Shown here: in pieces, positions 5,861 through 12,379 of the stretch
Layout: every line of letters starts with the position of its first letter
Numbering within the stretch: the stretch's first letter is position 1
DNA from: Okeania sp. SIO3B5
GTDB lineage: Bacteria; Cyanobacteriota; Cyanobacteriia; Cyanobacteriales; Microcoleaceae
Reading direction: 5' to 3'
Assembly: GCF_010692555.1 (NCBI RefSeq)
Contig: NZ_JAAHHG010000044.1
Coordinates: 1 to 38,888 of the forward strand
DNA: 38,888 nucleotides
The notes under the pieces: model-generated
The model's database searches: none
The model's input: the letters and a program-made list of their open reading frames with translations, nothing else
What the model was told of the DNA's origin: nothing
Program-made: the position numbers and the translations under genes

Positions 5861-6400
5861 TGAGATGTAAATCTAGATTGAGATTTGTTCTAATAAAAAA
5901 GCGCTGTATTGAGTACCATATATCTTTATGTTTACCACTATGTTAATACTGTTTTTCCTTCTTTACTATTCCCTCCATACCTATTCCCTATTCCCTTTTT
6001 AATAGGACTCAGTTTCCACATCCCAAATAAAAACGCTATATGAGATGTAAATCTAGATTGAGATTTGTTCTAATAAAAAAACACTGTATTGAGTACCATA
6101 TATCCTGATGTTTACCACTATGTTAATACTGTTTTTCCTTCTTTACTATTCCCTCCATACCTATTCCCTATTCCCTTTTTAATAGAACTCAGTTTCCACA
6201 TCCCAAATAAAAACGCTATATGAGATGTAAATCTAGATTGAGATTTGTTCTAATAAAAAAGCCCTGTCTTGAGTACCATATATCCTGATGTTTACCACTA
6301 TGTTAATACTGTTTTTCCTTCTTTACTATTCCCTCCATACCTATTCCCTATTCCCTTTTTAATAGAACTCAGTTTCCACATCCCAAATAAAAACACTATA
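5861..6400. repeat. three tandem 180-bp direct repeats abutting the next gene
   Basis: Units 5861-6040, 6041-6220 and 6221-6400 are each exactly 180 bp and differ by about 4-5 bases. Each begins TGAGATGTAAATCTAGATTG and ends AAAACGCTATA (AAAACACTATA in the last). The end of unit 3 is the A of the ATG of the UPF0182 gene, so all units carry the same leader up to an ATG. Confidence 0.95.
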
Positions 6401-9400
6401 TGAAATTTAATATTCTTTACAGACTAAAACTTAGGTCATCCAAAGTACTAGAAAATCTCAACTTCCTACAGATAGTAACTATATTTCTCATTCTATTAGG
6501 ATTGTGGGTAATATTTGATTTATCTACTAACATATTGGCTGAATTTTTATGGTTTGAAGAACTTAATTATTTGCCCGTACTAATAACTAAATTACAAACA
6601 GAAACTTTGCTATGGATAATTACTTTTGTAATTGCATCAGTCTTCTTTTTAGCAAATTTCAGACTAGCAAGTATATTTAAGTATCAAAAAAATCACAATC
6701 GAAAAACCGAAGTATATGAAGAAATGATGCTAATTCCACCAGTAACTATGCCATCAAGTAAGTTGCGTATTGAACCCTCATTTAATCTAGGCTGGTTGTT
6801 ATGTTTAGTATTAGGATTAATTTTATTCATAGGACTGATTCTAACTCATTATATTCAGGTATTTACTGATTACTGGCATCCTGATTTCACAGTTGCGAAA
6901 GTATCTCCACAAATTCCTTCAGCATTTAGCATAGAATCAATGTGGCAAATACTCAATCAAATACCGTCTAACTGGTGGCTATTAGGATTATTTATTGTAT
7001 TAGGTATTATTGTCATTATTAATCCTGTATTATGGTTAAGTATATTTGGGATAGTTCTAAGTTTAATTTTTAGTTTTATTCTTTCAAGTCATTGGGGAAA
7101 TATATTACAACTATTTAATGCTACTCCCTTTGCTAAAAGAGAAGATTTATTTCATATCAATATCAGTTTTTATGTTTTTCAAATTCCCTTCTTACAATTA
7201 TTAAAATTTTGGTTAATAGGATTATTTTTATATGGACTGGTTGCTTGCACTCTGATCTATTTATTGTCTGGAAACAGTCTAAGTAAAGGCAACTTTTATG
7301 AATTTTCCCAACAACAACAAAGACATCTTCATGCTTTAGGTGGAGGATTTATATTAACCGTAGCCTATAGTTACTTTCTAGCTTGTTTTGAATTAGTTTA
7401 TTCTCAGCGTGGTGTCATCTATGGTGCTGGTTATACAGATGTCAAAGTTCAGCTTCCTGCTTATATATTTTTGGCAGTTTTAGCATTATTAATCGCATTA
7501 TTTTTGTTTTGGCAAGCCATTTTTTCTATTAAAGATATTCAACCTTATATTGAAGCCAGTCTCCGATTTTTACGTTTGACTCGAAGAAGGAAAAAAAAGA
7601 AAAAATTGAGTGCAAAATTATTTGCTGATAGCTATTCATTAAGAGCTATCTTAACATGGTATTTAATCATCGCAGTAGTAATTGGTTGGTTATTACCAAA
7701 AATTGTACAAATAACTATGGTACAACCTAACGAAATAGACAGAGAAAGTCCATATATTAAACGTAGTATTAAATTTACTAGAGAAGCATATTTCGATCCA
7801 GAAAAATTAGAAGTAAAACTATTTGATCCAGAAAATCAACTTACCTATACTGACTTAATAAATAATAAATTAATCATCGACAATATTCGTCTTTGGGATA
7901 CAAAACCAATTTTACAAACCAATCGACAATTACAAGAAATCAGACCATATTATGAATTTAAAAATGCCGATATAGACCGCTATACATTTCTGAAGAAAAA
8001 AGAAGAAAGAACAAAAAATAATCCTACCCAAAAACAACAAGTAATCATCGCAGCTAGAGAACTAAACTATGAATCTGTACCTCAACCAGCACAAACTTGG
8101 GTTAATGAACATTTAGTCTATACTCATGGCTATGGTTTTACTCTTTCTCCAGTTAATCAAGTTGAAAAAAGTGGATTACCAGAATATTTCGTTCAAAATA
8201 TCGGACCAGATCCAACTTTTGAAAAAAATAGTACCTTAGAAGTATTAGAAAGAATTAGATTCAGTATTCCTATTGGTAAACCTAGAATTTATTATGGAGA
8301 ACTTACCAATACTCATGTAATTACTTCTACTGCAGAAAAAGATAGAGAATTAGACTATCCCAGTGGGGAAACAAACACCTATAACACTTACAGTGGCAGT
8401 GGCGGTATCGTCATCGGTACAAGCTGGAAAAAATGGGTATTTGCTAAATATTTAAAGAACTGGAGAATGTTATTCACTAATGAATTTATACCTCAAACCA
8501 AAGTCTTATATCGCCGCAATATTAATGCCAGAGTTCGAGCGATCGCTCCGTTTCTACGTTACGATAAAGACCCATATTTAGTAGTAGCTAATCCTCAATT
8601 CGATCAACAAGATGTTACTCAAACAACTCCCAGTTATCTCTACTGGATTTTTGATGCTTACACTACAAGCGATCGCTATCCTTATTCTGACCCAGAAAAT
8701 AACGAATTTAACTATATTCGTAACTCAGTAAAAGTTGTAATTGATGCCTACAATGGCTCAGTAAAATTCTATGTAGCTGACCCCAAAGACCCAATTATTA
8801 AAACCTGGAAAAAAATATTTCCTAATATGTTTTTTCCCATAGAAGAAATGCCAACAAGTCTCTATACTCATATCCGTTATCCAGTAGATTTATTTAAAGT
8901 ACAATCCGAACTATTGGAAACTTATCACATGGATGACCCCCGTGTATTTTATAATCGGGAAGATTTGTGGCGAGTACCTATTGAGATTTATGGTAATCAA
9001 CAGCAGAAAGTAGAACCTTATTATTTAATTACAAAATTACCAGCAGAAACTTCAGAAGAATTTATTCTTTTTCTACCCTATACTCCAGCAAGTCGTAACA
9101 ACTTAATTGCTTGGTTGGCAGCTAGATCAGATGCGGAAAATTATGGTAAGTTGCTGTTATATCAATTCCCTAAACAACGACCAATATATGGTCCTGAACA
9201 AATAGAAGCTTTGATTAATCAAAACCCAGAAATATCCCAACAAATTTCTCTTTGGAACCGTCAAGGAGCAAAAGCAATTCAAGGAAATTTATTAGTAATT
9301 CCAATGAATCAATCTTTGCTCTATGTAGAACCAATTTATTTAGAAGCAGAGCAAAATAGTTTGCCAACTTTAGCTAGAGTTATTGTTTCTTATGAAAACC

Positions 9401-9507
9401 GAATTGTTATGAAACCAACTTTAGATGAAGCATTAAAAGAAGTTTTTGAAGTAGAACCATTAGAACAACCTTTAGTTGTGCCACCTTTGGAATTGGAATT
9501 GGAATAA
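6400..9507 (+). CDS. UPF0182 family integral membrane protein
   Basis: 1035 residues, matching the UPF0182/COG1615 family: an N-terminal membrane half with about seven to eight predicted helices (roughly 22-42, 58-85, 130-152, 193-250, 265-292, 312-332, 350-382, 416-436) and a large, probably extracytoplasmic, C-terminal half. Family-typical stretches include LWFEELNYLPV near the N-terminus, LPEYFVQNIGP, IYYGELTNTHVI, PFLRYDKDPYLVV and YHMDDPRVFYNREDLW. The biochemical role of the family is not established. The C-terminus ends in a short Glu/Leu repeat (LELELE) and the stop is followed at once by GAAGGAAGAAGG STRR. ATG 6400 has no Shine-Dalgarno sequence and is the endpoint of the 180-bp tandem repeat. 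It stands alone. Confidence 0.92.
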   Translation: MKFNILYRLKLRSSKVLENLNFLQIVTIFLILLGLWVIFDLSTNILAEFLWFEELNYLPVLITKLQTETLLWIITFVIASVFFLANFRLASIFKYQKNHNRKTEVYEEMMLIPPVTMPSSKLRIEPSFNLGWLLCLVLGLILFIGLILTHYIQVFTDYWHPDFTVAKVSPQIPSAFSIESMWQILNQIPSNWWLLGLFIVLGIIVIINPVLWLSIFGIVLSLIFSFILSSHWGNILQLFNATPFAKREDLFHINISFYVFQIPFLQLLKFWLIGLFLYGLVACTLIYLLSGNSLSKGNFYEFSQQQQRHLHALGGGFILTVAYSYFLACFELVYSQRGVIYGAGYTDVKVQLPAYIFLAVLALLIALFLFWQAIFSIKDIQPYIEASLRFLRLTRRRKKKKKLSAKLFADSYSLRAILTWYLIIAVVIGWLLPKIVQITMVQPNEIDRESPYIKRSIKFTREAYFDPEKLEVKLFDPENQLTYTDLINNKLIIDNIRLWDTKPILQTNRQLQEIRPYYEFKNADIDRYTFLKKKEERTKNNPTQKQQVIIAARELNYESVPQPAQTWVNEHLVYTHGYGFTLSPVNQVEKSGLPEYFVQNIGPDPTFEKNSTLEVLERIRFSIPIGKPRIYYGELTNTHVITSTAEKDRELDYPSGETNTYNTYSGSGGIVIGTSWKKWVFAKYLKNWRMLFTNEFIPQTKVLYRRNINARVRAIAPFLRYDKDPYLVVANPQFDQQDVTQTTPSYLYWIFDAYTTSDRYPYSDPENNEFNYIRNSVKVVIDAYNGSVKFYVADPKDPIIKTWKKIFPNMFFPIEEMPTSLYTHIRYPVDLFKVQSELLETYHMDDPRVFYNREDLWRVPIEIYGNQQQKVEPYYLITKLPAETSEEFILFLPYTPASRNNLIAWLAARSDAENYGKLLLYQFPKQRPIYGPEQIEALINQNPEISQQISLWNRQGAKAIQGNLLVIPMNQSLLYVEPIYLEAEQNSLPTLARVIVSYENRIVMKPTLDEALKEVFEVEPLEQPLVVPPLELELE

Positions 9508-9765
9508 GAAGGAAGAAGGAAGAAGGAAGAAGGCAGAAGGAAGAAGGCAGAAGGCAGAATAGGACTTACACAAATTAACCTTGAAAACGCCATATGTAGG
9601 GGCGAATGGCATTGCCTAGCGCCAAGCTCCGCTAACGCCCTCACTTGATTTAATTTCCCTCCGTAAGTCCTGAAGAAGTTAAATTTATTCTGTCTAAAAC
9701 TAATAACTGATAACTGAAAAAGCTGATAACTGATAACTGATAACTGATAACTGAAAAAAGGGAGG
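9508..9765. repeat. STRRs and a MITE of the AGGACTTAC family
   Basis: GGAAGAAGG/GGCAGAA repeats at 9508-9558. A MITE at 9560-9671 has terminal repeats AGGACTTAC and GTAAGTCCT and contains a small dispersed repeat with GCTCCGCTAACGCC. TAACTGA heptamers follow at about 9703-9755. No gene. Confidence 0.65.
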
Positions 9766-10039: not shown

Positions 10040-10250
10040 CATAATGGAAAAGGTGCGCTCATATATACTCAAATAACTTAGGCCAAAAAACCATACTTGC
10101 GTATAATGAATAATTAATAATGAATGAGTTTAATTGTTAATTGTTGAAGAATAGTTGATAACTGATAACTGAATAAGAAGAAGTCTCATAACTGGTAACT
10201 AATAACTAAAAAAGCTGATAACTGATAACTGAAAAAGCTGATAACTGAAA

Positions 10251-12305
10251 ATGCAGTCTGGAAAAATCCTGAGACAACGTTACAAAATTATCGGGTCTCC
10301 TCTAGGAAGAGGAGGATTTGGAGACACCTACTTAGCTGAAGATTTAGATTTACCAGAAAATCCGAAATGTGTGGTTAAACATCTTAAACCTAAAAGTTCA
10401 GACCCAGGAATTTTGCCTGTTGCCCAAAAGTTGTTTGAGAGAGAAGCAAAAACCTTATATAAATTAGGCAAAGGCTCAGACCAAATACCAAAATTATTTG
10501 CTCATTTCCAGGAAGGAACAGAATTTTACTTAGTACAGGAATATATAGAAGGGCACGATATTAGTAGGGAACTTACGCCAGGGAAAAAATTAAGCGAGTC
10601 TTATACTATTACCTTACTCAAAGGAATATTAGAAGCATTAGCGGTAGCTCATCAAAATAATATAATTCACCGAGATATTAAGCCACAAAATTTGATGCGC
10701 CGTAAGTCGGATAGCAAAATAGTATTGATAGATTTTGGGGCGGTTAAAGAAATAAGTGTATTAACTACAGCTAACCAACCAGGTGCAACAACTTTCACTG
10801 TAGCAGTCGGAACCCCTGGATATATGCCAAGCGAACAAAGTAGAGGACAACCAAAACTAAGTAGCGATATCTATGCAGTGGGAATGGTAGGAATAAAAGC
10901 ACTGACTGGTAAAAACCCAGAAAATTTACCAAGAGACTCTAAGACAGAACATATTATCTGGCGAAATGAAGCAAAAGTGAGCGATCGTCTGGCAGATATA
11001 TTGGATAGGATGGTACATGAATATTTTCTGCTGCGTTATGAAAATGCGATGGGAGTATTAGAAGCGTTAGATATTCCAACTCCACCAGTACCTACACCAC
11101 AACCAACTCCAGCACCTACACCTACTCAAACAAAAACAGTAGTACCAAAACTCCAACCTCAACCTAATAAAACTAGAAGACAAATATTGACATTAGGAGG
11201 TTTAGCAGGAGGTGGGTTTGTTGCAGCAATGTTAACTAAAGATTTGTGGAGTGGAACATCTCCAGAAAGTATTTCTACTTCCCAACCAACTCTAGAAGAG
11301 CCAACACCAGAACCGTCCACTTCTCCTAAACCAACACCAGAACCTTCTACTTCTCCTAAACCAACATCAGAACCTTCCACTTCTCCTAAACCAACACCAG
11401 AACCTTCTACTTCTCCTAAACCAACATCAGAACCTTCCACTTCTCCTAAACCAACACCAGAACCTTCCCCTTCTCCTAAACCAACACCAAAATTTTCTAT
11501 TCAGACGTTTACTACCATCACAGTTAACAGTAGAGGAGAAGAAATAAGTAGTCGTGAAGGTCAAGCAGAAGTAATGACAGAAAACTTCAATGGAGTCTCC
11601 CTAGAAATGGTAAAAATTCCCAGAGGTAGATTTCTCATGGGGTCTCCAGAGACAGAAGCAGGGAGAAGTGATAGTGAAGGTCCGCAACATTATGTAGATG
11701 TGCCAGAATTTTTCATGGGAAAGTATCCAGTCACTCAAGCACAGTGGGAAGCAGTTATGGGAAATAATCTTTCTCACTTTAAAGGTGCGAGTCGTCCTGT
11801 AGAAAAAGTAAGTTGGAACGACACCACAGACTTTTGTCAGAAACTCTCAGAAATAACAGGAAAAAAGTATAGTTTACCCAGTGAGAGTCAGTGGGAATAT
11901 GCTTGTCGAGCAGGAACAACAACACCATTTTATTTTGGCGAAACTATAACGTCTGAGTTAGTTAACTTTAATGGCAACTCTACTTATGCTGATGCACCGA
12001 AAGGAATATATCGTGAAGAAACAACAGATGTGGGAATTTTTCCACTTAATGCTTTTGGTTTGTACGATATGCACGGGAATGTCTGGGAATGGTGTCAGGA
12101 TGTTTGGCATGATAATTATGAAGGTGCGCCTACTGATGGTAGTGCTTGGGAAACTGGAGGTAATAGTAATAGAAGAATGCTCCGTGGCGGTAGCTGGTAC
12201 AACGGTTCTAAGGTTTGCCGGACTGCCGGGCGCAACTATGGCAGTGCAAACCTCCTCGACTTCCGTTGTGGTTTTCGTGTCGTCTCGTCTGTCTCTGGTT
12301 CCTAG
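10251..12305 (+). CDS. Ser/Thr protein kinase with C-terminal FGE-sulfatase domain; candidate DGR target
   Basis: 684 residues. The N-terminal Hanks-type kinase (about 10-275) has GRGGFG, the catalytic Lys K43, HRDIKPQN at 140-147 and DFG at 161-163, so it should be active. A single membrane segment (about 309-328, preceded by a Thr-Arg-Arg) is followed by a Pro/Ser/Thr stalk with six 10-residue repeats (PTPEPSTSPK-type), then a formylglycine-generating-enzyme/SUMF1-like domain from about 450 (IPRGRFLMGS, GNVWEW, LRGGSW, CGFRVV). The likely arrangement is an inside kinase and outside FGE/C-type-lectin-fold domain, probably ligand binding rather than catalysis. After RGGSW (residues 645-649) the last ~100 bp are GC-rich and dominated by NNC/NNT codons, as in DGR variable regions of this fold. 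The ATG is preceded by GATAACTGAAA repeat with no SD. Confidence 0.9.
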   Translation: MQSGKILRQRYKIIGSPLGRGGFGDTYLAEDLDLPENPKCVVKHLKPKSSDPGILPVAQKLFEREAKTLYKLGKGSDQIPKLFAHFQEGTEFYLVQEYIEGHDISRELTPGKKLSESYTITLLKGILEALAVAHQNNIIHRDIKPQNLMRRKSDSKIVLIDFGAVKEISVLTTANQPGATTFTVAVGTPGYMPSEQSRGQPKLSSDIYAVGMVGIKALTGKNPENLPRDSKTEHIIWRNEAKVSDRLADILDRMVHEYFLLRYENAMGVLEALDIPTPPVPTPQPTPAPTPTQTKTVVPKLQPQPNKTRRQILTLGGLAGGGFVAAMLTKDLWSGTSPESISTSQPTLEEPTPEPSTSPKPTPEPSTSPKPTSEPSTSPKPTPEPSTSPKPTSEPSTSPKPTPEPSPSPKPTPKFSIQTFTTITVNSRGEEISSREGQAEVMTENFNGVSLEMVKIPRGRFLMGSPETEAGRSDSEGPQHYVDVPEFFMGKYPVTQAQWEAVMGNNLSHFKGASRPVEKVSWNDTTDFCQKLSEITGKKYSLPSESQWEYACRAGTTTPFYFGETITSELVNFNGNSTYADAPKGIYREETTDVGIFPLNAFGLYDMHGNVWEWCQDVWHDNYEGAPTDGSAWETGGNSNRRMLRGGSWYNGSKVCRTAGRNYGSANLLDFRCGFRVVSSVSGS
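11301..11480 (+). repeat. six 30-bp coding tandem repeats (Pro-rich stalk)
   Basis: Six in-frame units of CCAACACCAGAACCTTCTAC-type sequence, 30 bp each, encoding PTPEPSTSPK or PTSEPSTSPK. They form the extracytoplasmic stalk between membrane segment and FGE domain. The near identity suggests recent expansion and likely length variation. Confidence 0.9.
12183..12300 (+). other. candidate DGR variable region and downstream IMH-like end
   Basis: Begins at CGTGGCGGTAGCTGG (residues RGGSW) and ends near GGTTTTCGTGTC. Between them many codons end in C or T with varied first two bases (TAC, GGT, GTT, TAT, GGC, AGT, CTC, CTC, GAC, TTC, TGT), as expected if adenines of AAC/AAT codons in a template repeat had been randomised. 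The position, at the extreme 3' end of an FGE-fold gene followed by a GC-rich tail, is where DGR variable regions sit. No reverse transcriptase, avd or template repeat is in the window, so the call is inference. Confidence 0.55.
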
Positions 12306-12379
12306 GAATCTTCCTCTTTATTCTTTTCCTCTTTTCCCCTTATCCCTCTTTTTCTTTTCTCTGTTCCCTCCCGCGAATT

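What the first reader, a model, noticed from the sequence alone, without database searches (positions are those of the whole stretch)
12183..12305. Candidate DGR variable region at the 3' end of a kinase-FGE receptor
Seen: after RGGSW the codons become GC-rich and dominated by NNC/NNT with varied first and second bases (TAC, GGT, GTT, TAT, GGC, AGT, CTC, CTC, GAC, TTC, TGT), then the conserved CGFRVV. Known: FGE/C-type-lectin-fold domains are the usual hosts of DGR variable regions, and in those regions AAC/AAT template codons are hypermutated at adenines. Inference: the membrane kinase's external domain is diversified by a trans-acting DGR, linking a hypervariable binding surface to phosphorylation inside the cell. 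No RT, avd or template repeat is in this window.
Basis: partly seen in the sequence, partly recalled or inferred. Interest (0 to 1): 0.85.

Follow-up and report, generated by a model that had tools for sequence, protein, structure and literature searches.

The report
Orphaned DGR variable region in kinase
The end of this Okeania kinase gene is a real hypermutated variable region written by a diversity-generating retroelement, but the mutating machinery has since been deleted from this genome and survives only in a sister species, so the receptor is now probably frozen.

Summary
The last 40 codons of the kinase-FGE ORF (10251-12305) have GC3 0.58 against 0.23 in the rest of the gene; 85% of the core codons end in C/T. 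The window's own genome has no template repeat and no DGR reverse transcriptase. A sister species (inferred Okeania sp. SIO2C9) keeps a complete DGR: target, TR1, bAvd, RT, TR2. Against TR2 the window's VR differs at 18 of 30 template adenines but 7 of 73 other bases (p = 2.7e-7), and all 11 AAC/AAT template codons keep their third base. A syntenic ortholog is 93-97% identical in the kinase and 95% just downstream, but 68% in the VR core. SIO2C9 also shows trans diversification of kinase-FGE genes (14/30 and 9/30 adenines changed; 0/73 and 1/73 other bases). In the window's genome the same DGR locus is present but gutted: TR1 cut after 13 bases, avd reduced to about 12 codons, RT and TR2 gone. 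Three other Okeania genomes lost the element with different deletion boundaries. This is a genuine DGR remote target, orphaned by deletion of its retroelement. Kinase-CLec remote targets are already published for cyanobacteria; the Okeania losses were not found in the papers searched.

The parts
10251..12305 (+). kinase-FGE (CLec) variable protein gene, 684 aa
   Evidence: ORF, Pfam Pkinase + FGE-sulfatase
10296..10979 (+). Ser/Thr kinase domain with GRGGFG, VVK, HRDIKPQN and DFG motifs
   Evidence: Pfam PF00069 residues 16-243; motifs located
11172..11240 (+). weak hydrophobic segment preceded by TRR (possible membrane anchor)
   Evidence: Kyte-Doolittle maximum 1.43; topology inferred only
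11604..12284 (+). FGE/C-type-lectin-fold domain
   Evidence: Pfam PF03781; AF2 model matches PvdO 5hha and Treponema denticola DGR variable protein 2y3c; sequence match to 2y3c E 2e-21
12183..12305 (+). DGR variable region (VR), homologous to sister-species TR1/TR2
   Evidence: TR2 comparison: 18/30 adenines and 7/73 other bases differ
12198..12278 (+). hypermutated core of the VR
   Evidence: 55/81 identical to syntenic ortholog L078 while flanks are 86-97%; differences by codon position 11/11/4
12270..12305 (+). constant 3' end of the VR through the stop codon (IMH-like; role inferred)
   Evidence: shared by VRs and TRs; homology with TRs ends at the stop CTAG
12306..12376 (+). polypyrimidine tract directly after the VR gene's stop
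   Evidence: only + strand region of the window with 60-nt windows of 90% or more C/T; shared by many VR genes, absent after TRs

Best explanation
The gene is a remote (trans) target of a diversity-generating retroelement. An Okeania DGR (TR, bAvd, RT) sitting beside a TPR-FGE target gene near menD reverse-transcribed its template with adenine-directed errors and wrote the product into the 3' end of this kinase-FGE gene, randomising the ligand-binding face of the FGE/CLec domain. Later the retroelement was deleted from this lineage, leaving the locus with 13 bases of TR1 and a stub of avd. The VR is therefore now an orphan, fixed except for ordinary mutation. The protein presumably still works as a kinase whose CLec domain senses or selects a ligand. 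Shown: VR signature, sister-species machinery, trans action on kinase-FGE genes in the sister species, loss at the syntenic locus. Inferred: that the VR is frozen today, ligand binding, coupling to the kinase, membrane topology.
For: VR vs sister TR2: 18/30 template A differ vs 7/73 non-A, Fisher p=2.7e-7; third base kept at 11/11 AAY codons with 15/22 first/second A changed. Syntenic ortholog L078: VR core 68% identical vs kinase 93-97% and downstream 95%; differences at TR-A 18/30 vs 10/73, p=4.5e-6. Sister genome G002 has bAvd (PF22296 E 9e-21), RT (RVT_1 E 1e-22), two TRs, and a cis target differing only at A (10/30 vs 0/73); two remote VR genes 14/30 vs 0/73 and 9/30 vs 1/73 (p=2e-9 and 5e-5), one an intact 656-aa kinase-FGE. 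Own genome: no TR within 3 mismatches; every RT match is no more than 38% identical to a cyanobacterial DGR RT, and none reaches E 1e-40; C61 is the gutted locus, 88-97% identical to the sister's flanks. FGE/CLec fold with the known DGR protein 2y3c among the best hits.
Against: The assembly has 789 contigs and is 96.9% complete, so a second DGR on an unassembled piece cannot be excluded. 7 of 73 non-adenine differences exceed a fresh TR/VR pair; they fit template divergence between species plus later drift, but no template of this lineage is left to prove it. The CLec part upstream of the VR is also somewhat more divergent (86-90%) than the kinase, so some gene conversion among paralogs is likely. 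No population data were available.
Confidence: 0.87

Rival explanations
1. The DGR is still active in this organism; its RT and template lie in sequence missing from the draft assembly (for example on a plasmid).
For: Fragmented assembly, 96.9% complete; some cyanobacterial DGRs are on plasmids (PMC7517822).
Against: The ancestral DGR site is present and carries deletion remnants; three other Okeania genomes also lack the RT; one VR (C44) is protein-identical to its counterpart in another species, with only 3 silent changes.
Confidence: 0.1
2. Ordinary adaptive or relaxed evolution of an FGE-domain binding loop, without any retroelement.
For: FGE/CLec loops vary naturally between paralogs, and the RGGSW...CRSA...GFR frame is general to the family (own knowledge; homologs).
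Against: Adenine-specific differences from a real template, third-base retention 219/231 pooled over 21 VRs with 228/462 first/second A changed, VR-only divergence in a syntenic ortholog.
Confidence: 0.02
3. The VR was not diversified at this locus; the whole CLec 3' end was copied by gene conversion or transposition from another, DGR-diversified paralog.
For: CLec upstream of the VR is less conserved than the kinase. The syntenic SIO2B3 copy carries a different VR type (GFRIVFGGGRTL) and 3' flank. Many VR paralogs are scattered in each genome.
Against: Against L078 the sharp divergence is confined to the VR core; the 3' end and downstream tract match at 93-95%.
Confidence: 0.15

Closest known systems
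Cyanobacterial DGRs with kinase-CLec variable proteins and remote targets (Vallota-Eastman et al. 2020, PMC7517822)
   Same: Serine/threonine kinase domain joined to a C-terminal CLec with the VR at the 3' end; dispersed remote targets; RT about 69% identical between the Okeania sister and a Desmonostoc DGR.
   Different: Here the genome has lost RT and TR. The paper notes one paralog (all3226, Nostoc PCC 7120) with remnant TR-VR homology and no proximal RT and speculates on removal of components, but no held paper pairs DGR with Okeania.
Trichodesmium erythraeum IMS101 DGRs (PMC8867640)
   Same: Filamentous marine cyanobacterium with two DGR-RTs and many remote VR genes (18 loci with TR/VR homology reported).
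   Different: There the RTs are present and at least 11 targets vary in metagenomes.
Treponema denticola variable protein (PDB 2y3c)
   Same: FGE/CLec-fold protein, a known DGR variable protein (own knowledge); third-best structural match and second-best sequence match.
   Different: No kinase domain in the solved chain.
Formylglycine-generating enzyme (Pfam FGE-sulfatase; PDB 1y1e, 2q17)
   Same: Same fold and Pfam family.
   Different: The C-terminal loop is hypervariable here; enzyme activity is not claimed.

Membership tests
DGR variable protein (remote target) | C-terminal CLec-fold domain with the VR at the 3' end of the gene | tested here: met
   Pfam, AF2 model and PDB matches
DGR variable protein (remote target) | VR differs from a template mainly at template adenines | tested here: met
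   18/30 A vs 7/73 non-A against the sister-species TR2; no own-genome template exists for comparison
DGR variable protein (remote target) | AAY template codons randomised at bases 1-2 with base 3 kept | tested here: met
   third base kept 11/11, 15/22 A changed
DGR variable protein (remote target) | VR varies between orthologs while flanks do not | tested here: met
   68% vs 86-97%
Active DGR system in the window's genome | DGR-type reverse transcriptase in the genome | tested here: not met
   remnant locus C61
Active DGR system in the window's genome | template repeat in the genome | tested here: not met
   none within 3 mismatches; TR1 stub of 13 nt at C61
Active DGR system in the window's genome | accessory protein Avd | tested here: not met
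   about 12 codons left at C61, the only place searched for avd itself; intact bAvd in sister genome
Active DGR system in the window's genome | VR polymorphism within a population | not testable with these tools
   no reads; metagenome scans not available
Formylglycine-generating enzyme | catalytic copper-binding cysteine pair and FGly activity | not tested
   catalytic residues were not mapped; activity is a bench test

The most novel reading that the evidence does not exclude
In Okeania one ancestral DGR seeded a genome-wide repertoire of randomised receptor kinases and was then deleted with different boundaries in four of five sampled species, so that selected receptors became fixed and inherited. 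VR targets in many filamentous cyanobacteria are marked by a polypyrimidine tract just after the stop codon, which the Okeania TRs lack, that could be the cis signal for trans homing.
Probability: 0.4. Interest if true: 0.7.

Novelty: new member of a known kind. Interest (0 to 1): 0.5.

Why it matters
It gives a natural before/after series for a DGR: sister species with the same locus, one complete and four broken, and with scattered targets. This makes testable whether diversified receptors are kept by selection once hypermutation stops, an idea so far only suggested for cyanobacteria. It also shows that a VR in a genome without an RT can still be recognised as a fossil by comparison with a relative's template.

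Tried and rejected
The first degenerate template pattern was mistyped and is void; the correct one found only the VR itself. RVT_1 matches in the genome: those whose motifs could be read look like group II intron-type RTs (TPQGG...SPLLANI), and none is close to a DGR RT by direct search. A link between NNY content and the polypyrimidine tract was tested and not found, because nearly all sampled genes are VR-like. Text searches for DGR papers naming Okeania, polypyrimidine or pyrimidine-rich gave none in the held library.

Full report
The finding concerns the 3' end of ORF 10251-12305, a 684-aa protein with an N-terminal Ser/Thr kinase and a C-terminal FGE/CLec domain. The window comes from an Okeania-like filamentous cyanobacterium: its closest relatives by this protein are Okeania genomes, and the held genome has 11.06 Mb in 789 contigs.

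Observation. The VR stands out from the rest of the gene: GC3 0.575 against 0.231, and 85% of the core codons end in C or T against 43%.

Search for the machinery. A permissive pattern that lets every non-A base of the VR be A in a template found only the VR itself in the own genome. RT matches in the own genome are at most 38% identical to a cyanobacterial DGR RT, and those whose motifs could be read look like group II intron RTs. None reaches E 1e-40 with the sister-species RT.

The sister species. One of five Okeania genomes, G002, has an RT 69% identical to the Desmonostoc DGR RT. By exact sequence identity of two loci it is Okeania sp. SIO2C9. Its locus (L153) reads: TPR-FGE target gene ending at 6041, TR1 at 6199, bAvd 7035-7367, RT 7358-8452, TR2 at 8481. 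The cis target differs from TR1 at 10 of 30 adenines and at none of 73 other bases. Two distant genes differ from TR2 at 14/30 and 9/30 adenines and at 0/73 and 1/73 other bases; the second is an intact kinase-FGE of 656 aa. So trans diversification of this very architecture is directly visible in the sister species.

The window's VR against that template. It differs from TR2 at 18/30 adenines and 7/73 other bases (p = 2.7e-7). At all 11 AAC/AAT codons of TR2 the third base is kept, while 15 of 22 first and second bases changed. Pooled over 21 Okeania VRs, third bases are kept at 219/231 and first/second adenines changed at 228/462; these rows are not independent of each other. Ordinary selection for a variable loop would not be expected to spare third bases.

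The syntenic ortholog. L078 (Okeania sp. SIO1I7) shares the upstream genes at 93-95%. Along the gene, identity is 93-97% in the kinase, 86-90% in the CLec, 68% in the VR core, 93% at the VR's 3' end and 95% just downstream. VR differences fall at template-adenine positions (18/30 vs 10/73, p = 4.5e-6) and at codon positions 1/2/3 as 11/11/4, against 12/11/17 in the adjoining CLec. In SIO2B3 the syntenic gene carries a different VR type; in SIO2C9 the gene is absent from this site.

Loss of the element. The DGR site next to menD (named from sequence by own knowledge) is recognisable in all five genomes. In the window's genome (C61) the target gene is intact, TR1 breaks off after 13 bases, about 12 codons of avd remain, and RT and TR2 are gone. 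In SIO1I7 everything between the target's VR and the downstream gene is missing; in O. hirsuta the deletion starts inside the VR; in SIO2B3 it starts inside the target gene. The different boundaries argue for separate losses, although nested later deletions cannot be excluded. One other VR of the own genome (C44) is protein-identical to its counterpart in SIO2B3, with three silent changes in genes 95.7% identical, as expected of a frozen VR under constraint.

Structure. The CLec model (mean pLDDT 77; weak at about residues 120-180 and around the start of the VR) matches PvdO and the Treponema denticola DGR variable protein 2y3c (sequence match). Surface exposure of the VR residues was not computed.

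Literature. Kinase-CLec DGR targets, remote targets and possible removal of components are described for cyanobacteria (PMC7517822); Trichodesmium remote targets in PMC8867640; trans activity in Thiohalocapsa in PMC10907252. No held paper pairs DGR with Okeania.

Verdict. A true DGR remote target whose retroelement has been deleted: new member of a known kind, with an informative evolutionary setting.

Noticed in passing
window 12306-12376; also after VR genes in many fetched loci: A polypyrimidine tract starts right after the stop codon of VR genes (29 of 57 with 80% or more C/T in 60 nt, against 3 of 400 other ORFs of 250 aa or more), in several loci followed by a GC hairpin and T run; the sister-species TRs lack it. 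Genes are related, so the test overstates significance.
   Followed up: partly
G000:C61 (L057:6686-8726): Gutted DGR locus of the window's own genome: TR1 stub, avd stub, no RT; repeats of CAGTTATC at the break point.
   Followed up: yes
G000:C212 (L058:4905-10667): A single 1921-aa ORF with six successive FGE/CLec units, each with its own VR-like end; similar units in other Okeania.
   Followed up: no
Okeania VRs, pooled: Bases at template-adenine positions: A 345, T 155, G 114, C 16; A to C is strongly under-represented.
   Followed up: no
L086 (syntenic gene, Okeania sp. SIO2B3): At the same locus the VR and 3' flank belong to another template lineage (GFRIVFGGGRTL), so VR type can switch at one site.
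   Followed up: partly
G055:C32, G058:C1341, G056:C377, G061:C282 (family genomes): DGR RTs closely related to the sister RT, several with stops or split into pieces: RT decay may be common in the family.
   Followed up: no
window 9494-9566: Purine-rich short repeats (GAAGGAAGAAGGAAGAAGGCAGAAGG) at the end of the UPF0182 gene.
   Followed up: no
window 10120-10250: Short direct repeats of GATAACTGATAACTG just upstream of the kinase-FGE gene, like those at the DGR break point in C61.
   Followed up: no
own genome: 55 RVT_1 matches, apparently many group II intron copies and fragments.
   Followed up: no
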